From an uncultured Paracoccaceae bacterium (GTDB lineage Bacteria; Pseudomonadota; Alphaproteobacteria; Rhodobacterales; Rhodobacteraceae), in NCBI GenBank assembly GCA_937900975.1, contig CALCPC010000608.1:1-17419 (forward strand): 17,419 nucleotides of DNA. Reading direction: 5' to 3'. A program made the position numbers and the translations under genes. Positions 1 through 10,248 of this stretch are shown piece after piece (position 1 is the stretch's first letter; each line of letters starts with the position of its first letter). The notes below the pieces were generated by a model that was not told where the DNA came from, did not search any database, and saw only the letters and a program-made list of their open reading frames with translations.

Positions 1-410
1 GGATGCTGACCAACATCAACTCCGGCAAGGACGAGCTGTTGCAGCTGGTGCTGGTCGGCCAGCCGGAGCTGCGCCAGGTGATCAGCCGGCCGGAGCTGCG
101 CCAATTCGCACAGCGCGTCGTGGCCAGCATCCATATCGGCGCGCTCGACCGCACCGGCGTGGCGCGGTATATCGCGCACCGGCTGGAGACGGCGGGCGGC
201 CAGGCGGAGATGTTCAGCCCCGAGGCAATGGCCCAGGTGCACGCGGCCTCGGGCGGGATCCCGCGGCTGATCAACAAGATCTGCGATTTCGCGATGATTT
301 ATGCGGCCACCAATGAAAGCCGCGTGGTCGAGGCGGGCACCGTCGACGAGGTGCTGCGCGCCGGGCTGTTCGTGACCACGTTCGAGACGACCGAAGAGGC
401 GGCGGAATGA
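1..410 (+). CDS. ExeA/GspA-like AAA ATPase of exopolysaccharide locus, C-terminal part
   Basis: This is the 3' end of a gene that starts outside the window; the frame is open from the first base. The visible 135 residues carry the second half of an ExeA-type AAA module: a LVLVGQPELR sensor-like strand near the start and an SGGIPRLINKICD helix near residue 90, both typical of ExeA/GspA ATPases and of the ATPase that accompanies Wzz and tyrosine kinase genes in exopolysaccharide loci. Walker A and B lie upstream and cannot be checked. The stop overlaps the start of the next gene as ATGA, so the two are translationally coupled. Its role is probably cytoplasmic energy or regulatory support for polysaccharide export; that is inferred from family and neighbours. 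Confidence 0.85.
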   Translation, partial: MLTNINSGKDELLQLVLVGQPELRQVISRPELRQFAQRVVASIHIGALDRTGVARYIAHRLETAGGQAEMFSPEAMAQVHAASGGIPRLINKICDFAMIYAATNESRVVEAGTVDEVLRAGLFVTTFETTEEAAE

Positions 411-1942
411 TCGATGACTTGAAATTCTACATGCGCCTCGGGCTGCGTTGGATCTGGCTCTTCCTGCTGGTGGCCGGGCTGATCGGCGGCGCGGCGGTGG
501 CCTTGGCGTTCAGCCTGCCCACGACCTACAGCGCGTCGGCGCTGCTTTTGGTGGAGAGCGAGCAGATCCCGGGCGAGCTGGCCTCAAGCACCGTGCGCAC
601 GGATGCGGCCGAACAGCTTGAGGTGATCGAACGGCGGCTGATGACGCGCGCCAACCTGATCGATATCGCCCGCGCGCTGGATGTCGTCGGAGACATCGGC
701 GGGATGAACCCCGATGAGGTGGTGGGCATGATGCGCGCGCGCACCACGATCTCGACATCGTCGGGGCGCAACCGCGCGACGTTGATGAGCATCAGCTTTA
801 ACCATGGCGAGGCGCGCACCTCCGCCGCCGTGGTCAACGAATACATCACCCGGATCCTTGAGGCGAATGTCGAACTGCGCCGGGGACAGGCCCAAGACAC
901 GCTCGCCTTCTTTGAAGCACAGGTCGAACGTCTGGGCGTCGATCTCGATGCGCAAAGCGCGCGCATCCTGGAATTCAAGAACGCCAACAGCGACGCGCTG
1001 CCCGACAGTCTTGACTACCGGCTGGGGCGGCAATCGCTGTTGCAGGAACGGCTCGCGCAGATAGAGCGCGAGCAGGCCGCGCTGCTCGAACAGCGCGACA
1101 GGCTGGTGGACATGTTTGAAGTGACGGGCCGTCTTTCGGCCCCGACCACGGAACGGCTGACCGCCGATGAGGCGCAGCTCAACCGCCTGCAGGATGAGCT
1201 TTCGGGGCTCCTGGCCGTCTATTCGGAGCAAAACCCGCAAGTGCGCGTGCTGCGCGCCCGGATCAAGACGCTGCAAACCCGCATCGGCGCTTTGCCGATC
1301 GTGGACGCAACCGATGGCGGGGATGTGGAGGCGTCGCTGCTGGACATTCAGTTGGCCGAGATTGACGCCCGGGCCGAGGTTTTGACCGAGCAGCGCACCC
1401 AGGTCGAGCAGGAACTGTCCGCCTTGCGCGATACGGTCGAGCGCACGCCGGCCAATGCGATCACGCTGGATGCGTTGCAACGCGATTACGAGAACATTCA
1501 AGCGCAATACAACCAAGCCGTCGATGGCGCTGCCAAAGCGGCCACGGGCGAGCGGATTGAGCTTTTGTCCAAAGGCCAGCGGATTGCGGTGATCGAGCAA
1601 GCCTCCGTGCCGACGGAACCCGCCTCGCCCAACCGGCCGCTGATCGCAGGCGGCGGTATCGTTCTCGGCACCGGCACCGGTTTTGGGTTGGTCGGGCTGA
1701 TCGTGCTCTTGAACAGCACCGTGCGCCGGCCGGCCGATCTTGAGCGCCGTTTTGGGATCCAGCCCCTTGGAACCCTGCCCTATATCCGCACCCGCGGCGA
1801 ACTGCTGCGCCGGCGCGTCGCCGTCAGCGGCGTGTTGGCCGGCAGCGCCGCTTTGGTGGTCGGCGGGTTGTTCTATGTCGATCGCGAGATCACCCCCCTT
1901 GTGCTTGTGGCCGAGCGTGTGTTCACGCAACTCGGTCTGTAA
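407..1942 (+). CDS. Wzz/GumC-type polysaccharide chain-length determinant
   Basis: A 511-residue inner-membrane protein of the polysaccharide co-polymerase family. The first membrane helix is at residues about 15-37. A long periplasmic alpha-helical, coiled-coil-prone region rich in Q, E and R follows (about 170-395), then the proline-rich PTEPASPNRP motif at 402-411 just before the second helix (about 411-437). A third hydrophobic stretch at about 472-491 lies after the point where ExoP-type fusions would carry the kinase. Here the kinase is a separate gene 22 bp downstream, as in split Wzc/Etk-like systems. It is expected to set polymer length and to contact the kinase. The start overlaps the ATPase stop. 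Confidence 0.9.
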   Translation: MIDDLKFYMRLGLRWIWLFLLVAGLIGGAAVALAFSLPTTYSASALLLVESEQIPGELASSTVRTDAAEQLEVIERRLMTRANLIDIARALDVVGDIGGMNPDEVVGMMRARTTISTSSGRNRATLMSISFNHGEARTSAAVVNEYITRILEANVELRRGQAQDTLAFFEAQVERLGVDLDAQSARILEFKNANSDALPDSLDYRLGRQSLLQERLAQIEREQAALLEQRDRLVDMFEVTGRLSAPTTERLTADEAQLNRLQDELSGLLAVYSEQNPQVRVLRARIKTLQTRIGALPIVDATDGGDVEASLLDIQLAEIDARAEVLTEQRTQVEQELSALRDTVERTPANAITLDALQRDYENIQAQYNQAVDGAAKAATGERIELLSKGQRIAVIEQASVPTEPASPNRPLIAGGGIVLGTGTGFGLVGLIVLLNSTVRRPADLERRFGIQPLGTLPYIRTRGELLRRRVAVSGVLAGSAALVVGGLFYVDREITPLVLVAERVFTQLGL

Positions 1943-1964
1943 CGGCCCGCGGGAGGCACGGGAT

Positions 1965-2795
1965 ATGGAAAAACTTCAGGCCGCCATCGCCAGGGCCCGC
2001 GCACAGCGCGAAGACGCCGATCCAGCGCTGCGGATCGGCGCCGCACGGACGCCAGCACACACGCCAAACCGCGCCGCCGGTCCGCTGCCGGTGTGGGAGG
2101 CGCTGACGCCCCTCACCCTCGATCCGCGCCACCTGGCGCGCAACCGGATCGTGACCATTGGCAGCAACGCCGAAACGACCACATTCGACATGCTGCGCAC
2201 CAAGATCCTGCAGCAGATGGCGGCCAAGGGCTGGACCCGGCTTGCCATCACCTCGCCGGGGCCGGGCTGCGGCAAGACAACGACGGCGATCAATCTGGCG
2301 GGGTCTCTGGCCCGCCAGGCGGACACGCGGGCGGTGTTGATGGAAATGGACATGCGCCGCCCGTCGCTGGCACGGCTTCTGGGCCAGTCGCCCCCCGCCA
2401 GCGTCTTTGACCTGCTGGAAGACCGGATCGGCTTCTCCGAACAGGCGCATCGCCTCGGCAACACGGTGGCGCTGTCGATGAACGCCACCCCCTTCCGCCA
2501 TCCGTCCGAGCTGTTTCTGCAAACCCGCACCAGCGCCAAGCTCGATCAGATCCAAGCCGAGACCGGATCCGATTTGATGCTGTTCGACATGCCGCCCATG
2601 CTGGTCAGCGATGACACCACCGCGTTTTTACCGCAGGTCGACTGCGTCCTGATCCTGGCCGCCGCCGAAACCACGACGCTGTCGCAAATCGACCAGTGTG
2701 AGCGAGAGGTTGCCAGCCAAACCAATGTGTTGGGCGTGGTGCTGAACAAAATGCGCCTAAAGGACGAGAGCTATGGCCAGTACGGCAAATACTGA
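1965..2795 (+). CDS. CpsD/CapB-type bacterial tyrosine autokinase (BY-kinase)
   Basis: A 276-residue cytoplasmic kinase. The ATG at 1965 is preceded by GGGAGG at a good distance, so this start was chosen over the longer open frame. Motifs visible are Walker A PGPGCGKTT (98-106), a Walker A'-like LMEMDMRRP (125-133) and Walker B LMLFDMPP (204-211). The C-terminus is a short tyrosine cluster, YGQYGKY, the usual autophosphorylation tail of this family. With the separate Wzz protein upstream it should form a two-protein chain-length and export regulator. The final codons, including the whole tyrosine tail, overlap the start of the next gene. Walker A' has M instead of the more usual D/A pattern (VDADLRRP), a variant rather than a loss. 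Confidence 0.9.
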   Translation: MEKLQAAIARARAQREDADPALRIGAARTPAHTPNRAAGPLPVWEALTPLTLDPRHLARNRIVTIGSNAETTTFDMLRTKILQQMAAKGWTRLAITSPGPGCGKTTTAINLAGSLARQADTRAVLMEMDMRRPSLARLLGQSPPASVFDLLEDRIGFSEQAHRLGNTVALSMNATPFRHPSELFLQTRTSAKLDQIQAETGSDLMLFDMPPMLVSDDTTAFLPQVDCVLILAAAETTTLSQIDQCEREVASQTNVLGVVLNKMRLKDESYGQYGKY

Positions 2796-3666
2796 CCCAA
2801 ATGCCGCAACCGTTGGCGCGGTCATCATCCCGCATTACAACGACACGGCGCGGCTTGACCGCTGTCTCGCAGCGCTCGGCGCACAGGATCTGACGGCGGT
2901 TGAGGTTGTGGTGGTCGACAATGGGTCGACCGAGCCGCTTGCCGCCGTCAAAGCGGCGCATCCCTTCGCCCGCTTTGTGGTCGAGCCCGAGAAAGGCGCC
3001 GCCGCCGCGCGCAACCGCGGTGTCGCCGAAACGACGGCGCCGGGGCTGTTCTTTTTGGATGCCGATTGCGTGCCCACCTCCGATTGGCTGGCCGCAGCCC
3101 TGCGCGCGACCGCCCCCGGAACCGTCACCGGCGGTCGGGTCGAGGTGTTCGACGAAACGCCGGGGCCACGCTCTGGCGCGGAAGCGTTCGAAACCGTCTT
3201 TGCCTTTCACCAGCGCGCCTATATCGAAAAGAAGGGGTTTTCCGTCACGGCAAATCTGATCACCACTCGGGCCGTGTTCGAGGCCACGGGGCCGTTCCGG
3301 GCTGGGGTGTCGGAAGATCTCGATTGGTGCCACCGGGCGACGGCGGCGGGGCATCGGCTGGTCTATGACGACCGGCTGACCGTCGCGCATCCGACGCGCC
3401 GGGATTTAACTGCGCTCCTTGGCAAGTGGCGGCGGATGACGGCCGAGACCTTTGGGCTGGGCGGCGGGGGGGCGCGCGCGCGGCTGATCTGGGCGGGGCG
3501 GGCGTGCCTGATGCCGCTCAGCGTGCTGGCCCATGCCCCCCGGGTGATGACGCATCCCGCCCTCGCCTCGCCCGGCGAGCGGGCCCGGGCCCTGGCGACG
3601 CTGGCCCGGCTGCGGCTGACGCGCAGTGTCTGGATGCTGCGCCAGGCCGCCGGGCTCGGGCTCTGA
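2773..3666 (+). CDS. GT2-family glycosyltransferase
   Basis: A 297-residue GT-A fold transferase. Visible motifs are VIIPHYND near residue 15 (nucleotide-binding strand), VEVVVVDNGS near 45, and FLDADC near 95, the DxD-like metal/nucleotide-sugar site. An acidic SEDLDWCHR segment near 180 probably supplies the catalytic base. The C-terminal about 80 residues are basic and hydrophobic and may associate with the membrane. The ATG lies inside the last codons of the kinase gene (23-nt overlap), so translation is probably coupled. It should add a sugar to the lipid-linked repeat unit of the exopolysaccharide; donor and acceptor cannot be told from the sequence. Confidence 0.88.
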   Translation: MASTANTDPNAATVGAVIIPHYNDTARLDRCLAALGAQDLTAVEVVVVDNGSTEPLAAVKAAHPFARFVVEPEKGAAAARNRGVAETTAPGLFFLDADCVPTSDWLAAALRATAPGTVTGGRVEVFDETPGPRSGAEAFETVFAFHQRAYIEKKGFSVTANLITTRAVFEATGPFRAGVSEDLDWCHRATAAGHRLVYDDRLTVAHPTRRDLTALLGKWRRMTAETFGLGGGGARARLIWAGRACLMPLSVLAHAPRVMTHPALASPGERARALATLARLRLTRSVWMLRQAAGLGL

Positions 3667-3699
3667 CGGCCCTGTCTTTCCCAATTTCGAGAGTTCCAA

Positions 3700-4761
3700 A
3701 TGACCGACCCAAGCCTTGCCGCCGACAGCCCCGCAAAAACCCCTGTGCCGATCTCCGGCACGGCGCCGGATCCCGATCTGGGCCCCGATCTTGGCCCCGA
3801 TGCTGACCCCGATCCCGATCCCAATGCTGCGGCGCTGACGGTGATCGTCGTCAGCTACAACACCCGGGCGCTGACGCTGGCCGCGCGGCGGACGCTGCAC
3901 GAGACCACCACCACGACCCGGTTGCGCACCGTGGTCTTTGACAACGCCTCCAAAGACGGCTCGGCCGACGCCATCGCCGCCGCCTTCCCGGAGGTTACGC
4001 TGATCCGTTCCGAGGAGAATCTGGGGTTCGCACGCGCCAACAATGTCGTCGCGAAAGCGGCGACCACCGACTGGCTTTTGCTGCTCAACCCCGACACCGA
4101 GGTCCATGCCGGGGCCGTCGACGCCCTTATCGCCTTTGCCCGCGCCAATCCACGCGGCGGGATTTATGGCGGACGGACGGTGTTCCCGGACGGGGCGCTG
4201 AACATCGCCTCGTGCTTTGCGCGGATCACACCGTGGAGCGTGACGTCGCGGACCTTCGGGTTGACGACGCTGTTTCCAAACTCCCGCCTCTTCAACCCCG
4301 AGGTTATGGGCGGCTGGCAGCGGGACAGCGTGCGCGAGGTCGATGTCGTGGTCGGGTGCTTCCTTTTGATCCGCCGCGCGCTTTGGGATCGGCTTGGCGG
4401 GTTTGATCTGCGCTATTACATGTATGGCGAGGATGCCGATCTCTGCCTGCGCGCCCGCGCGCTCGGCTATCGGCCGATGATTACGCCCGATGCCGAAATC
4501 ATGCATCTTGTCGGCGCGGCAAGCCGCACACGGGCCGATAAAATGGTGTTGCTGGCCCGGGGACGGCTCACCTTGATCCACGATCACTGGCCCAGCTGGC
4601 AGGTGCCCTATGGCCGGGCCATGATGTGGCTTTGGGCCGGGTCCCGCTCTGCGGCGACCGGGCGTTTGGCGCGTCTGCGTCCGACGGCGTCAAACCGCGC
4701 CCGAGCAGAGACCTGGGCCCATATCTGGGCCGAACGCCGGGCGTGGCTGACGCCCTATTAG
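3700..4761 (+). CDS. GT2-family glycosyltransferase, rhamnosyltransferase-like (COG1216 type)
   Basis: A 353-residue transferase. After an unusual N-terminal extension (about residues 1-45) rich in Asp-Pro and Gly-Pro-Asp steps, the GT-A core begins with VIVVSYNT, then VVFDNASKDGS, ENLGFARANN and LLLLNPDTE (the DxD-type site), and later GEDADLCLRARALGY, which is characteristic of rhamnosyl-type GT2 enzymes. It lies 33 bp after the previous transferase and is probably the last gene of the operon, because the next 490 bp are AT-rich and non-coding. The acidic extension is low-complexity and not part of the catalytic fold. Sugar specificity is not determinable. Confidence 0.88.
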   Translation: MTDPSLAADSPAKTPVPISGTAPDPDLGPDLGPDADPDPDPNAAALTVIVVSYNTRALTLAARRTLHETTTTTRLRTVVFDNASKDGSADAIAAAFPEVTLIRSEENLGFARANNVVAKAATTDWLLLLNPDTEVHAGAVDALIAFARANPRGGIYGGRTVFPDGALNIASCFARITPWSVTSRTFGLTTLFPNSRLFNPEVMGGWQRDSVREVDVVVGCFLLIRRALWDRLGGFDLRYYMYGEDADLCLRARALGYRPMITPDAEIMHLVGAASRTRADKMVLLARGRLTLIHDHWPSWQVPYGRAMMWLWAGSRSAATGRLARLRPTASNRARAETWAHIWAERRAWLTPY

Positions 4762-4774: not shown

Positions 4775-5254
4775 GAGGGCGGTCCTGCGAAAACCGATCC
4801 ACACAGACGACAGCCCGGCCGAGAACAGGATTGCGCACAGCCCGGCTGCCGACCGCGTTCGCTCAAGTATTGCTTAAATTTTAGGCATCTTCCGCGGCGG
4901 GACGGATATCCCCGGGGGCGCGATCCGCAATGTCTTGCCAAGGCAGGCAGCATCCGTCATCTCCGCTTGCCATCCGCTGTTCGCATTTCAAACTGTATCT
5001 GGCGATACAATATATTCAAATATTGTAAGGTTCCGAATGGAGTCTTTTGTGGTATTTGCCTCAATGTCGTCAAAAACACTAATTCTACATCCTCAGTAAT
5101 ACTTTCTTTCCTTTATAAAACAAAGGCCTAAATTCCATTTTGGTCTTAGACCTATTTTAACAGATCAAGGCGATGAGTAACGCCTTGTACAGTAGCCAGT
5201 GTATCTCCCTGTTAAACGTCACGTAGAACAACGGGTTATATTTTGCTGGATGCC
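4775..5254. promoter_or_regulatory. AT-rich leader region with multiple inverted repeats
   Basis: This stretch has no convincing gene. From about 4980 to 5220 the composition drops sharply to AT-rich, unlike the rest of the window. It holds several perfect inverted repeats: GTATC-N4-GATAC (4995-5008), TACAATAT-N6-ATATTGTA (5006-5027), CCTTT-N7-AAAGG (5110-5126), GGTCT-T-AGACC (5142-5152) and CAAGGCG-N8-CGCCTTG (5166-5187). It most likely carries the promoter and operators of the large secreted protein gene that follows. I could not pick a convincing -35/-10 pair. Confidence 0.55.
5006..5027. promoter_or_regulatory. Candidate operator: 22-bp perfect inverted repeat
   Basis: TACAATAT and ATATTGTA are perfect reverse complements separated by six bases (ATTCAA). 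Half-site length and spacing suit a dimeric helix-turn-helix regulator. The site overlaps the right arm of a smaller palindrome, GTATC-TGGC-GATAC, at 4995-5008. It lies about 230 bp upstream of the secreted protein start. Which regulator binds is unknown. Confidence 0.45.
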
Positions 5255-8164
5255 ATGACCGATGCCACGCTCACCACGCCGGCCTCCGCCAGCGTCGTTG
5301 CAACGTCCACAGATGAAATCGAGGCTGCCATTGCCCTGTTGGCCGCGGGCGACGGCGGCACGGTTTACGTCGCCAACACCGGCGAACCCCTGCAAATCAG
5401 GGCCAAAAATCTCGGCGCCGCCGACGCCCCGGTGATCATCCGCCCGCTCGATCCCGACACCCCGCCGGTGATCGAGGAGATCAACTTTTACAACGCGCAA
5501 AACTTGACCGTCACCGGCATGACCGTCTTCAGCGGCGCCTATGCCGATCAGCGCGAGGCATGGATCAACGACGTCACCATCCGGCAGTCCGAAAACATCC
5601 AATTGATCGGCAATGTCATGACGGGCACCGCCGATGGCATGTATATCGGCGAGGGCGGTCCCAAGAAATCCGAGTCGCTGACCAAGATCAACGACTCAAG
5701 CGGCATCGCTTTTATCGACAACGAGATCTCGAACTATTTTCACGGGATCGGGATGACCAACACCACCGACATCACCATCGTCGGGAACGAGATCTATGGG
5801 ATGCAGGGCGACGGCATCCGCGGCGGCGGCTGGCAGAACGCTTTGGTCGAAGGCAACCATCTGCACAGCTTCTTCGGTTCGCTGCACACGCTCAACCACG
5901 ATGACATGATCCAGATCTGGGGCACCGGCAATGTCGAGATCCTGAACAAGGACATCGAGATCCGCGGCAATTTCCTCGATTCCGCCGGCATGACCCACAC
6001 CCAAGGGATCCACATCCGCAACGAAGCCTTCGGCACCGAGGGCGTGACCGGCGGGTATTTCGAAAACATCACCGTCGCAGACAATGTGATCCACAATTCC
6101 CAGGCCAATGGCATCCGGGTCAACGACACAATTGGCGTCGAGATCGTGAACAACACGCTGTTGTGGGACGAGGCCGGATCGGGGCTCAACACAATCGACA
6201 GCACACCGACCAGCGCGGCTCCCCGGATTGTGTCCGACAACGCGCAAGACCGCACAATCGCGAACAATGTCACGACCAATATTCTGATCGATGGCGCCCA
6301 ATCCAACGCTGGAAACTACATCGTCACCTATGACGATCCCGCCTCCAGCGCCTATATCCACAAGCATATCGTCAATCTTTCGGGCCTTGGCGCGGTCGAC
6401 CTTGTCGACCTGTCCTTCCGCTCTGACAGCCCGCTTTTCGGCACCTATGGCGCGGCGCTGTCCAGCACCGCGGCAACTCTTGAGCCGATGGTCGCCGTCT
6501 TCAGCAGCGACGACCTTATGGGCAACCGGCTTGGCGTGACGCTCAGCGCCGAGCACAGCACCGTGGACGGCGCTTTGATCGACCCCTCCGCGACCGTGTC
6601 CTGGACCTTTGCCGATGGCACGGTGATGGAGGGTCTTACGGTCACGCGGGTGTTCGAAACAGCCGGGGTCCACGACGTTACGCTTGATATCACCACCCTC
6701 GACGGGCGCCGCGACAGTATCGAGCGCCAGATCAGCGTCGAGGCTGCGGAAAACTTCCAAATCGATTTCGCGTCCGGCGGACAAGACACATCGGGGCGCG
6801 ACAGCATCGTCAGTGTCGAAGACCCGGATGCGGATGCTTTTGTCGACCTGACCGAGAACGGCAGCGTCGGGCTGCTGGACAGCGGACCCGCGGCGGTGTT
6901 TCGCCTCGATGGCGAGAACCGGTTCGAAGTCACCCGCGACAACGCCCATCTTTACAACCTCGACACGTTTACGATCGACGTCTCGTTCCAGCATGAGGCC
7001 GGAACGGTGGGCAGCCTCGCCTATTTGCACAAGGTGATCGATCTCCGCGTGACGGCAGACGGGGGCGTCGACTTTAAGCTGACCACCGACCAGGGCAGCT
7101 TTCAGATCGTGACCGAAGACGGGCTGCTCAGCGGCGCCGTGTTTCACGATATCAAAGTCGCGTATGACGGGCCCTTCGGCCTGCTCCAAGTGCTGGTGGA
7201 CGATGTCGTCGTCGGGCAGACCGACGCGTTCGGACAGACCCCGGCGCAAGACGGCCATGGGATGGTCCTTGGCAACACGTTCAAAGGCGCGTTGATGGGG
7301 ATGGTGGGGCAGTTCTCCATGACCGTTCCGCCGTCGCAGATCTATGCCGACGACACCCCGCCGCCGGGCGAGGACGACCCGGACCAGGATCCGGCCTACG
7401 CCCTGGTACAGGACATCCTGGCCTTGGAGGCCACAATCGAGGACGAGGCGCTGGCCTTCGACGGCGTCGCGATCGTCTCTGACGGCGGGTCGACCGCCGG
7501 TACGCAATCCAGCGATATGATCCTCGGCGCAGACGGCGCCCGCGACGTGATCGAGGCCGGCTATGGCCAGGACATCGTCCTAGGCGGCGGCGGCAGCGAC
7601 ACCGTCTCGGGCGGGGCGCAGGGCGACAGCCTTTCCGGTGGCGCCGGCAAAGACCTCCTGCGCGGGGATATGGGGTCGGACAAGATCGCCGGTGGCGCCG
7701 GCGACGATGTCCTCGATGGCGGGCATGGGCGCGACCAACTTGTCGGCGGCGCCGGCAACGACGTCCTGATCGGCGGCGGTCTGCAGGATATTCTGATCGG
7801 CGGGGAGGGGGACGACACCCTGGTGGGAGGCACCAGCGACGACATCCTGATCGCCGGCCCAGGCCTTGATATTCTGCAAGGGGACAAGGGCGCTGATTAC
7901 TTCGTCTTCGACGCGGAGTTCGGCGCTGATGTCGCGGTCATCGCCGACTTCACCGTCGGTCTGGACAGCATCGTTCTTGGCACCCTGGCCAGTCTTGACG
8001 CCGATAAAGGGTTTGCGGACTTCAAGCTCGGCGCCGAGCAGGTCGGAGAAGACGTCGTCTACACCGCCCCGGATGGAAGCGCGCTGACATTGCAGAATGT
8101 CCAGTTGGCCGAGCTGACCGCCGCCCATTTCACCGATCTCGACCACGCCTTGGCCACCTACTGA
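5255..8164 (+). CDS. Secreted beta-helix / PKD-like / LamG-like / RTX protein, candidate polysaccharide lyase or epimerase
   Basis: A 969-residue multidomain protein. ATG 5255 is preferred; an in-frame TTG lies at 5243, and neither has a clear ribosome binding site. Residues about 15-358 form a right-handed parallel beta-helix with many repeated 'N-x-I' turns. A conserved-looking acidic patch NHDDMIQIW (214-222) is a candidate active site. A PKD-like domain (about 412-500, WTFADG...) and a LamG/concanavalin-like domain (about 500-695) follow, then an acidic Pro linker. About 752-880 is a block of GGxGxDxLxGG nonapeptides that bind calcium, and the C-terminus has no further domain. There is no Sec signal peptide, so type I secretion through the C-terminal signal is expected. 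Position next to an exopolysaccharide operon suggests it modifies or cleaves that polymer, as alginate C5-epimerases do. Substrate and reaction are inferred. Confidence 0.85.
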   Translation: MTDATLTTPASASVVATSTDEIEAAIALLAAGDGGTVYVANTGEPLQIRAKNLGAADAPVIIRPLDPDTPPVIEEINFYNAQNLTVTGMTVFSGAYADQREAWINDVTIRQSENIQLIGNVMTGTADGMYIGEGGPKKSESLTKINDSSGIAFIDNEISNYFHGIGMTNTTDITIVGNEIYGMQGDGIRGGGWQNALVEGNHLHSFFGSLHTLNHDDMIQIWGTGNVEILNKDIEIRGNFLDSAGMTHTQGIHIRNEAFGTEGVTGGYFENITVADNVIHNSQANGIRVNDTIGVEIVNNTLLWDEAGSGLNTIDSTPTSAAPRIVSDNAQDRTIANNVTTNILIDGAQSNAGNYIVTYDDPASSAYIHKHIVNLSGLGAVDLVDLSFRSDSPLFGTYGAALSSTAATLEPMVAVFSSDDLMGNRLGVTLSAEHSTVDGALIDPSATVSWTFADGTVMEGLTVTRVFETAGVHDVTLDITTLDGRRDSIERQISVEAAENFQIDFASGGQDTSGRDSIVSVEDPDADAFVDLTENGSVGLLDSGPAAVFRLDGENRFEVTRDNAHLYNLDTFTIDVSFQHEAGTVGSLAYLHKVIDLRVTADGGVDFKLTTDQGSFQIVTEDGLLSGAVFHDIKVAYDGPFGLLQVLVDDVVVGQTDAFGQTPAQDGHGMVLGNTFKGALMGMVGQFSMTVPPSQIYADDTPPPGEDDPDQDPAYALVQDILALEATIEDEALAFDGVAIVSDGGSTAGTQSSDMILGADGARDVIEAGYGQDIVLGGGGSDTVSGGAQGDSLSGGAGKDLLRGDMGSDKIAGGAGDDVLDGGHGRDQLVGGAGNDVLIGGGLQDILIGGEGDDTLVGGTSDDILIAGPGLDILQGDKGADYFVFDAEFGADVAVIADFTVGLDSIVLGTLASLDADKGFADFKLGAEQVGEDVVYTAPDGSALTLQNVQLAELTAAHFTDLDHALATY

Positions 8165-8508: not shown

Positions 8509-9516
8509 ATGGTAAAGCCTCTCAGCCGTGCCCTTGGGGTGCTTTCGACGCTGGGTGTCGCCCCGCCCGCCGGGGCGCAATTCAAGGTCGCGCCGCCCGC
8601 CGGGGCGCAATTCAAGGTCGCCCCGCCCACCGGGGCGCTTTTGCGCCTCGCCACATCCGCCGGGGCGGTCTTGCTTTTCGCCACGCCTGCCATGGCGGAG
8701 GATCTCTCGGTCGAGGCCGAGGACGCGGCGCTTGGGATCGCGGATCGTGTTCTTGAGGCGTTTGCGGACAGCATGCCGTCGACCCGATTTGCGCTGTCGT
8801 CGGATCTGCGCGTCAGGACGGCGGCCATCTGGGGCGAAGAGGGTGCGATTGCGTTCCCGGATCCGGCCCACGACCATGTGCAGCTGGAGCTATCGAAGAC
8901 AGAGACCGACGCGCTCTTTCTTTTGATGCAGGACGCCGGGGGAGCATGGCACCAGACGGCGCTGAAACAGGGGCATCTGATCTATTGCCAATCGGCCCGG
9001 CGCATCTGCCTGATCCTCAATCGCGCGGCCTTTGCAGAAGCTTTGGGGGCGACGTCGGACGATCTGAACGACGCGCTCTTCAATCCAAACCGCGCAGCGG
9101 CGGGGATGGCGCCGGCGCTCGGTCTTCTGGTGCTCACCGCGGGCGCGGCCACCCTTGCGGGCGCTTTTGTCTTTGCGCGCCGCGCCCGGGCGGCGGATTC
9201 GACCCGCGTAGATCCCGACCGGTTTACCATCGGGGATATCGACATCTTCCCTGCCGCGTTGAAGGCGACAAGAGCCGGTGCAGAGGTCGACCTGACGCGC
9301 CGGGACATCGCAATTCTGCGCCATATGTATGACCGGCACGGCGCGGTTGTCAGCAAGGACGAGCTTTATGACGCTGGCTGGGGGCGGGACTATATGCCCA
9401 ACAGCCGCGCCTTGGACCAGCACATCTTGGCGCTGCGCCGCAAGCTGGACCCGGACCAATCCCGGACGGAGGTGATCGAGACCGTGCGCGGTGCCGGGTA
9501 CCGCCTGGCGCCCTAG
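8509..9516 (+). CDS. Membrane-anchored one-component regulator: periplasmic N-terminus, C-terminal OmpR/PhoB-type winged helix
   Basis: A 335-residue protein with unusual topology. Residues 1-63 look like a signal peptide whose C-region is expanded by a 10-residue repeat (VAPPAGAQFK twice, then VAPPTGALLR, LATSAGAVLL, FATPAMA); cleavage after AMA63 is likely. Residues about 64-199 would be periplasmic and contain two cysteines, C160 and C167, which could form a disulfide. One membrane helix follows (about 200-223) with RRAR on the cytoplasmic side. Residues about 236-335 form an OmpR/PhoB-type winged helix (DLTRRDIAIL, VVSKDELYDAGWG, ALDQHILALRRKL, VIETVRGAGYRL). There is no receiver domain and no kinase nearby. 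This reverses the ToxR/CadC order, where the winged helix is N-terminal. It should sense a periplasmic signal and bind DNA directly. Direct repeats 12 bp after its stop are candidate binding sites. Confidence 0.82.
   Translation: MVKPLSRALGVLSTLGVAPPAGAQFKVAPPAGAQFKVAPPTGALLRLATSAGAVLLFATPAMAEDLSVEAEDAALGIADRVLEAFADSMPSTRFALSSDLRVRTAAIWGEEGAIAFPDPAHDHVQLELSKTETDALFLLMQDAGGAWHQTALKQGHLIYCQSARRICLILNRAAFAEALGATSDDLNDALFNPNRAAAGMAPALGLLVLTAGAATLAGAFVFARRARAADSTRVDPDRFTIGDIDIFPAALKATRAGAEVDLTRRDIAILRHMYDRHGAVVSKDELYDAGWGRDYMPNSRALDQHILALRRKLDPDQSRTEVIETVRGAGYRLAP
8557..8706 (+). repeat. Five degenerate 30-bp tandem repeats inside the signal-peptide coding region
   Basis: Units start at 8557, 8587, 8617, 8647 and 8677, exactly 30 bp apart and in frame. 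Units 1 and 2 differ at one base; units 3-5 diverge progressively. Each of the first units contains a short self-complementary core (CGCCCCG/CGGGGCG). The unit encodes a decapeptide ending in an AxA-like signal-peptidase motif, so the array looks like duplications of an ancestral signal-peptide C-region. Because the unit is a multiple of three, copy-number change would alter length without breaking the frame. Confidence 0.85.
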
Positions 9517-9527
9517 AAAACGGCGTT

Positions 9528-9571
9528 TCTTGCATCCCTCTTGCAAAGTTTTTGCAGTGTTTTCGCATCCC
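9528..9571 (+). promoter_or_regulatory. Four 11-bp-period direct repeats, PHO-box-like operator
   Basis: Consecutive 11-bp units read TCTTGCATCCC, TCTTGCAAAGT, TTTTGCAGTGT and TTTCGCATCCC. Seven bases (TYTTGCA) are conserved and four are variable, the same 7+4 geometry as PHO boxes bound head-to-tail by OmpR/PhoB-family winged helices. The array lies between a gene for such a winged-helix protein and the start of the Sel1 gene, 60 bp upstream of its ATG. Binding by the neighbouring regulator is an inference from geometry and position. Confidence 0.6.
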
Positions 9572-9583
9572 GCCTTCGGGTTT
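9569..9583 (+). terminator. Weak hairpin with short T-run between regulator and Sel1 gene
   Basis: CCCG-CCTT-CGGG followed by TTT. The stem is only 4 bp, so it could be an attenuator or a chance structure. It directly abuts the last 11-bp repeat. Confidence 0.25.
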
Positions 9584-9630
9584 GTGCGCAACTGAGGCGG
9601 TCAATCCCATCTGCATTAAGGAAGGCTGCC

Positions 9631-10248
9631 ATGGCTCGCAAAACCATCTCTGCCCGGCCCAGTTCTGCTGGCCCCATCTCTGCCATGATCGTGACGATCC
9701 TCCTGGCGGCCCCCGCCCAGGCCCAAAACTTCAAGGCGTTCGGCGGGCCGTGCCAGTTGCAGCAAGAGGATGCCCACGGGACGCTCAACCCCGAGGAGCT
9801 GTCGATGTGCGGTTTCATCAAAAGGATGCGCACCGACGAGGTTCATCCGCTCATGGGCGCGGTCGGCTATGGCGCGGCGAAGTCCGGCAACCACGAAGCC
9901 GCGCGTGAAATCTTCCGCGACGTGGCCAAGTCCGGCAACGTCATGGCGATGACCTGGATGGCTTGGATGGAAGACAACGGTCTTGCCGGTCCCGAAGACG
10001 CCGCCGCCGCCGCCGAATGGGACCGCCGGTCGATGGAAGGCGGCAGCGCGGTTGGCGCGTTCAACTACGGTTTGGACATTCTGCGCGGGCGCGGGGTTGC
10101 CAAGGATGAGGCGCTTGGCCGCAAGATCATCGAGAGGGCGGCAGAGCTTGGCGATCGCTCTGCCCAGCATCTGATCGACAATGATTTCGACCTCGACAGT
10201 GTCACGCCGGATGCGGATGCCTGGAAATACCAGGAGCGCTTGTTTTAG
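9631..10248 (+). CDS. Secreted Sel1-repeat (TPR-like) protein
   Basis: A 205-residue protein. ATG 9631 is chosen because AAGGAAGG lies a normal distance upstream and a signal peptide follows directly (hydrophobic stretch about 17-28, cleavage after AQA31). The mature protein has two cysteines (C41, C60) that could form a disulfide, then Sel1-like helical repeats from about residue 72 to 185 (for example YGAAKSGNHEAAREIF, YGLDILRGRGVAKDEAL and ERAAELGDRSAQHLI). Sel1 proteins act as scaffolds in envelope or signalling complexes. It follows the membrane regulator gene on the same strand with an array of operator-like repeats between them, so it is probably the regulator's target or partner in the periplasm. 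No catalytic motif is seen. Confidence 0.85.
   Translation: MARKTISARPSSAGPISAMIVTILLAAPAQAQNFKAFGGPCQLQQEDAHGTLNPEELSMCGFIKRMRTDEVHPLMGAVGYGAAKSGNHEAAREIFRDVAKSGNVMAMTWMAWMEDNGLAGPEDAAAAAEWDRRSMEGGSAVGAFNYGLDILRGRGVAKDEALGRKIIERAAELGDRSAQHLIDNDFDLDSVTPDADAWKYQERLF

What the first reader, a model, noticed from the sequence alone, without database searches (positions are those of the whole stretch)
9528..9571. Four direct repeats with exact 11-bp period between a winged-helix regulator gene and a Sel1 gene
TYTTGCA is repeated at 9528, 9539, 9550 and 9561 (the last copy with one change), each followed by four variable bases. This 7+4 layout is that of PHO boxes, where OmpR/PhoB-family domains bind head to tail. 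The gene ending 12 bp before the array encodes just such a domain, and the array lies 60 bp upstream of the Sel1 gene. Together they look like a regulator, its operator and its target.
Basis: partly seen in the sequence, partly recalled or inferred. Interest (0 to 1): 0.75.

Follow-up and report, generated by a model that had tools for sequence, protein, structure and literature searches.

The report
Membrane regulator, repeat operator, exported target
A small, patchily distributed two-gene cassette of alphaproteobacteria pairs a membrane-spanning DNA-binding protein with a conserved row of four short DNA repeats that is very probably its docking site, in front of a gene for an exported Sel1-repeat protein.

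Summary
It is not chance. In 13 wHTH-Sel1 loci (window plus 12) three units score 18-21 of 21 in 12; none of 48 Sel1 loci without the wHTH neighbour exceeds 15. Among 394 family genomes the exact three-copy array occurs in 6 of 8 with the wHTH, always between wHTH and Sel1, and in 7 of 386 without. In two wHTH genomes a further array lies, unlinked, before an exported cupin gene whose homologue follows Sel1 in four other cassettes; three cupin genes in genomes without the full-length wHTH lack it. The regulator appears to be a membrane protein with its DNA-binding domain at the C-terminus, opposite to ToxR/CadC. Only these two genes are shared by all 13 loci, and 1 of 17 genomes of one genus has the wHTH. 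Best reading: PHO-box-like operator of a membrane-tethered one-component regulator in a patchy regulator-operator-target cassette. Binding, sign of regulation, topology, signal and Sel1 feedback are untested.

The parts
8509..9516 (+). Membrane-anchored (predicted) winged-helix regulator gene (335 codons; start codon uncertain)
   Evidence: the ORF listing; Pfam Trans_reg_C E 8.4e-24 at residues 257-333; hydrophobic segment from residue 204; homologues
9118..9174 (+). Predicted transmembrane segment (residues 204-222)
   Evidence: hydropathy peak 2.07 at residue 204; a peak of 1.5 or more shortly before the winged helix in 28 of 30 aligned homologues; long helix 193-229 in the model
9277..9507 (+). 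C-terminal OmpR/PhoB-type DNA-binding domain (residues 257-333)
9528..9567 (+). Operator-like array: four units of TYTTGCA with N4 spacers, 11-bp period (9528-9534, 9539-9545, 9550-9556, 9561-9567)
   Evidence: exact three-copy form searched in the family
9618..9625 (+). Likely ribosome-binding site AAGGAAGG before the Sel1 ATG
   Evidence: read directly
9631..10248 (+). Gene for exported-looking Sel1-repeat protein (205 codons), the presumed target

Best explanation
The array is the operator of the wHTH protein encoded just upstream. That protein is a one-component transmembrane regulator: an N-terminal export/anchor segment, a fast-evolving periplasmic sensor of roughly 130 residues with two invariant cysteines, one transmembrane helix and a C-terminal cytoplasmic OmpR/PhoB-type winged helix. 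Several copies bind head to tail, one per 11-bp unit (about one helical turn), on one face of the DNA, and switch on (most likely) the promoter of the exported Sel1 protein and, in some genomes, of an exported cupin protein. The fourth, degenerate unit (NNTNNCAC, for example CTGACAC or CTCACAC) may serve as or overlap a -35 element. Shown by computation: array, conservation, close association with the regulator gene, unlinked second target, domain order. Inferred: binding, activation rather than repression, membrane topology. Unknown: signal.
For: Array 18-21/21 in 12 of 13 linked loci versus at most 15 in 48 of 48 unlinked Sel1 loci, Fisher p 7e-12. In 15 aligned 100-bp stretches (L048 left out) the array is the main conserved block. 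Exact three-copy pattern in 6 of 8 wHTH genomes versus 7 of 386 others, p 9e-9; all 6 lie between wHTH and Sel1; reversed control pattern 2 places against 15. In 8 of 8 wHTH genomes a Sel1 gene follows on the same strand (coordinates). Unlinked cupin genes of two wHTH genomes carry arrays of 20/21 and 19/21 roughly 100 bp upstream; three near-full-length cupin genes in genomes without the full-length wHTH score 11. Cupin and wHTH co-occur (5 of 8 versus 4 of 386, p 9e-8, one of the 5 a remnant; 4 of 8 without it, p 5e-6). The recognition-helix stretch PNSRALDQH is identical in 11 of 13 loci, while mean pair identity is 30% for the N-terminal part and 60% for the DNA-binding domain. 11-nt units with 7 conserved and 4 less conserved bases are the published layout bound tandem head-to-tail by PhoB (PMC4415409, passages). 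No consensus sigma-70 promoter was found at 9450-9700, as expected if an activator is needed, but this is weak evidence.
Against: No binding or expression data. L048 has the pair but a degenerate array (14/21, one 10-bp step by eye), and in G413 the relaxed pattern found no place in the cassette. L042 has a partly out-of-phase array (15/21) before a Sel1 gene in a genome where only DNA-binding-domain matches were found (best E 2.6e-16). Nine exact three-copy places in 7 genomes lie outside cassettes; three are palindromic (L139, L145, L147), but L138 and L144 look like real arrays before other genes and L137, L143, L146 were not classified. No common -10 element was found downstream. Linked loci are related, so counts are not fully independent (effective 14.0 of 15 rows at 70% identity). 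One search scored only the best 6 candidates per genome, so wHTH genes could have been missed.
Confidence: 0.8

Rival explanations
1. The array is bound by another OmpR-family response regulator of the host, not by the neighbouring membrane protein.
For: The host genomes hold several OmpR-type regulators (G000: 5 matches, the query itself included). Response regulators with 49-60% identical DNA-binding domains exist (P0095, P0097-P0103). Arrays resembling this one precede other genes in genomes without a wHTH match (L138, L144).
Against: Array and wHTH co-occur tightly and both are patchy: 6 of 8 versus 7 of 386 genomes. The cupin genes examined keep an unlinked array only in wHTH genomes (2 of 2 against 0 of 3). 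Three genomes whose hits cover only the DNA-binding domain (G151, G285, G392) have no exact three-copy array.
Confidence: 0.12
2. The array is a repressor site: the membrane regulator keeps Sel1 off until a periplasmic signal releases it. (Shares the operator reading with the best explanation; differs in sign.)
For: Position relative to a promoter is unknown; the fourth unit resembles a -35 element, so occupancy could block RNA polymerase (inference).
Against: Same-phase tandem sites that run into the -35 region are the arrangement of PhoB-type activation (recalled; PhoB-sigma contact is mentioned in PMC4415409, passages); no good sigma-70 promoter was found.
Confidence: 0.25
3. The repeats are a chance or decaying tandem duplication without function.
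For: Short, AT-rich units could arise by slippage; a 30-bp tandem repeat lies in the neighbouring gene (8557-8638).
Against: The spacers vary while the units stay, at the same phase, over loci whose flanks mostly differ; 2000 shuffles never reach the score; the array recurs at unlinked cupin genes.
Confidence: 0.01

Closest known systems
PHO box / tandem operators of OmpR-PhoB-type response regulators
   Same: 11-nt direct repeats, 7 conserved plus 4 less conserved bases; winged helix of the same fold family
   Different: Core TTTTGCA instead of CTGTCAT; three to four units; regulator has no receiver domain and is predicted to sit in the membrane
ToxR/CadC-like transmembrane regulators
   Same: Single protein with a winged helix, a transmembrane helix and a periplasmic sensor; best fold match is the CadC DNA-binding domain; two invariant cysteines in the sensor
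   Different: Reversed order: sensor first, DNA-binding domain last; ToxR, VtrA and CadC have it first (PMC9214523, passages)
Co-component systems VtrA/VtrC and ToxR/ToxS
   Same: Two-gene cassette, membrane regulator followed by an exported protein, fast-evolving periplasmic part (PMC9214523, passages)
   Different: Partner has a Sel1 fold, not a lipocalin-like one, and an operator-like array lies between the two genes; physical interaction untested
ExoR-ChvG/ChvI of Rhizobiales
   Same: A periplasmic Sel1-repeat protein tied to a transcription factor (PMC3460628, passages; that ChvI is of OmpR type is recalled)
   Different: There a kinase and a response regulator carry the signal; here one protein would span both roles
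HigX of Caulobacter
   Same: Alphaproteobacterial transmembrane regulator with its DNA-binding domain after the membrane part (PMC13384398, passages)

Membership tests
PHO-box-type tandem operator | Direct repeats at 11 nt, 7 conserved plus 4 less conserved bases | tested here: met
   12 of 13 linked loci 18-21/21 at period 11; the other periods tried reach at most 16 in any of the 13; column profile
PHO-box-type tandem operator | Bound head to tail by an OmpR/PhoB-type winged helix | not testable with these tools
   Needs footprinting or gel shift
PHO box of PhoB itself | Core like CTGTCAT | tested here: not met
   Core is TTTTGCA
OmpR-family response regulator | N-terminal receiver domain | tested here: not met
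   Only Trans_reg_C in the window protein; no receiver family in any of the 30 homologues of A1
ToxR/CadC-like regulator | OmpR-type winged helix of CadC fold | tested here: met
ToxR/CadC-like regulator | DNA-binding domain N-terminal, periplasmic domain C-terminal | tested here: not met
   Winged helix is residues 257-333 of 335; hydrophobic peak before it in 28 of 30
ToxR/CadC-like regulator | Transmembrane helix joining both parts | tested here: inconclusive
   Hydropathy and model agree; topology not measured; N-terminal hydrophobic peak in 22 of 30, not in the window protein itself
Co-component system | Downstream gene for an exported partner | tested here: met
   wHTH then Sel1, same strand, in 8 of 8 wHTH genomes of an unselected draw; the 13 loci were chosen for it; export inferred from signal-like N-termini
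Co-component system | Physical complex with the regulator's periplasmic domain | not testable with these tools
   Needs pull-down or two-hybrid; similarity-matrix correlation 0.80 only shows co-inheritance
ExoR-ChvG/ChvI | Histidine kinase plus response regulator | tested here: not met
   The regulator has no receiver; no third gene is shared by the 13 loci within the flanks held

The most novel reading that the evidence does not exclude
A self-contained, horizontally moving signalling cassette in which a ToxR-reversed membrane regulator turns on an exported Sel1 protein that in turn binds the regulator's periplasmic domain and shuts it off (ExoR-like feedback compressed into two genes), with the disulfide-capable sensor and a cupin as further envelope parts.
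Probability: 0.25. Interest if true: 0.75.

Novelty: new variant of a known kind. Interest (0 to 1): 0.6.

Why it matters
It would give a minimal system in which regulator, operator and target are all identified and travel together, so the open question of how a membrane-tethered factor reaches and stacks on a multi-unit operator can be tested directly. The reversed domain order also allows a test of whether ToxR-type signalling depends on which end the DNA-binding domain is attached to. The authors of PMC13384398 (passages) call HigX the first of its class of transmembrane transcription factors characterised in alphaproteobacteria; none of the papers listed by searches (capped listings, titles and abstract starts) was seen to be about the present family.

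Tried and rejected
Chance or slippage repeat: rejected by conservation. Autoregulation through a like array before the wHTH gene: none found, 11-15 of 21 in the 12 loci tested (L048 not tested). Large regulon: at up to 3 mismatches the 8 wHTH genomes give 18 rows outside G244 against 3 for the reversed control, and 51 against 1 in G244, which is swamped by palindromic elements of the same letters. Outside G244, 6 places are neither cassette nor cupin; one search looked at all 6: L153, L159 and L166 lie inside longer reading frames, L165 lies at the start of an opposite gene, L164 and L169 have a forward frame starting 145 and 115 bp downstream and remain possible weak targets. wHTH elsewhere in the L042 genome: only DNA-binding-domain matches. 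Common -10 element: none. Promoter and terminator scan of 9450-9700: nothing. Presence outside the family: in a class-wide draw that also held some family members, 0 of 288 other genomes matched at E 1e-40, with at most 8 candidates scored per genome. Contig lengths of 1500 bases or more shared by the two homologue lists: 27, out of 82 distinct wHTH and 70 distinct Sel1 lengths; the lengths were typed from part of the listed rows; indirect, not used as proof. Sel1 start codons of the relatives were approximate. Literature: listings; passages of PMC10269533, PMC3460628, PMC4415409, PMC13384398, PMC9214523 and one short section of PMC10269533.

Full report
Observation. The window carries TCTTGCA, TCTTGCA, TTTTGCA and TTTCGCA at 9528, 9539, 9550 and 9561, exactly 11 bp apart, 11 bases after the stop of one gene and 63 bases before the ATG of the next. 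Chance is excluded: 3 matches of the two-copy pattern against a mean of 0.21 in 200 shuffles; 21 of 21 against a best of 17 in 2000 shuffles of the 300 bp before Sel1. The exact two-copy pattern is found nowhere else in the genome held, which is 78% complete.

Conservation. Sel1 relatives were fetched from named genomes and MAGs: 60 loci, 12 of which have the wHTH gene directly upstream. Scoring three units gives 18-21 of 21 in 12 of 13 linked loci (window included) and 10-15 in 48 of 48 unlinked ones; Fisher p 7e-12. The exception, L048, keeps TTGCA-like units with one 10-bp step (by eye). In 15 aligned arrays, L048 left out and two cupin arrays included, units 1-3 read TTTTGCA with a T favoured before units 1 and 2, spacers vary, and a fourth unit keeps only NNTNNCAC (for example CTGACAC, CTCACAC or TCGCAC).

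Specificity. The wHTH family, matched over nearly its whole length, is in 8 of 394 family genomes; three further hits cover only the DNA-binding domain; at most 6 candidates were scored per genome. In all 8 a Sel1 gene follows on the same strand. The exact three-copy array is in 13 of 394 genomes, 15 places: 6 of the 8 wHTH genomes, one place each and always between wHTH and Sel1, and 9 places in 7 of the other 386; p 9e-9. The reversed pattern gave 2 places. Of the 9, the two in G411 and the one in G137 are palindromic; L138 and L144 (two overlapping places) are arrays before other genes and may belong to other regulators; L137, L143 and L146 were not classified. The two wHTH genomes without an exact match are G156, which has one mismatch in the relaxed search, and G413, whose cassette array was not found even at 3 mismatches.

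A second, unlinked target. In L033-L036 a gene for an exported-looking ChrR-type cupin follows Sel1 (Cupin_7 match just below cut-off). In G245 and G244 this cupin gene lies elsewhere and has its own array, 20/21 and 19/21, roughly 100 bp before the start codon. The cupin is in 9 of 394 genomes, 5 of them wHTH genomes, one of these a remnant (p 9e-8, or 5e-6 without the remnant); no match was found in the window's own genome, which is incomplete. The three near-full-length cupin genes of genomes without the full-length wHTH (G093, G010, and G151, which has a DNA-binding-domain-only hit) score 11; a fourth, in G368, is cut by a contig end. That the operator follows a target to another place in the genome, and only where the regulator is present, is the strongest evidence here, though it rests on two genomes against three.

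Cassette. Within the flanks held, only the wHTH and Sel1 genes are shared by all 13 loci (frames of 80 residues or more at E 1e-10; opposite-strand shadow frames of these genes were disregarded). Most flanks differ, but L037 and L038, both Pelagimonas, share theirs, so inheritance is vertical at least there. In one genus 1 of 17 genomes has the wHTH. In a class-wide draw only the window's own genome of 289 matched. Similarity of the two proteins runs in parallel over the loci (r 0.77-0.80), as expected of joint inheritance. The DNA-binding domains average 60% identity, the N-terminal parts 30%, and PNSRALDQH is identical in 11 of 13: constant operator, variable sensor. Horizontal movement is inferred from this patchiness.

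Mechanism. Most likely the winged helices stack head to tail on the units, as PhoB does on the PHO box (PMC4415409, passages), and activate Sel1 and cupin transcription from the membrane. The sign is inferred: no consensus promoter was found, and no shared -10 element. Feedback by Sel1, as for ExoR on ChvG (PMC3460628, passages), is a hypothesis.

Standing. New variant of a known kind: known fold, known operator layout, unusual domain order, new core sequence and a new cassette. None of the papers listed by searches was seen to be about it; these cover open-licence PubMed Central papers and only capped listings were read.

Noticed in passing
L149 (reverse complement about 1501-2168); L193; L033-L036 about 5590-6220: Exported-looking ChrR-type cupin gene that either follows Sel1 in the cassette or carries its own array elsewhere in the genome.
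   Followed up: yes
G244, many places such as L171, L172, L176: Dispersed palindromic elements built from letters like TTTTGCAAAACTTTTGCAAATTCCGTGCA; 51 matches to the three-unit pattern at up to 3 mismatches in this one genome, cassette and cupin arrays included.
   Followed up: partly
L138 about 1501; L144 about 1501-1540: TCTTGC arrays at 11-bp period before other genes (L138: a gene that looks by eye like 6-phosphogluconate dehydrogenase) in genomes without a wHTH match; possibly another regulator with a like site.
   Followed up: partly
L042 about 4875-4915: Sel1 gene of a Geminicoccaceae MAG with a partly out-of-phase array but no full-length wHTH relative found in the genome.
   Followed up: partly
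L164 about 1501; L169 about 1501: Weaker three-unit matches (3 mismatches) 145 and 115 bp before a forward reading frame in G328 and G396; possible further targets.
   Followed up: partly
8557-8638: 30-bp tandem repeat, 2.7 copies, in the N-terminal part of the wHTH gene (PPAGAQFKVA repeats); not seen in the other 29 aligned homologues, so the true start may lie further in.
   Followed up: no
L040 5558-6118: A second, diverged Sel1 gene directly after the first.
   Followed up: no
5243-8164 and 407-4761: Large protein with right-handed beta-helix, PKD and RTX calcium-binding repeats, near a Wzz-like gene and frames that look by eye like glycosyltransferases: possibly an exopolysaccharide locus beside the cassette.
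   Followed up: no
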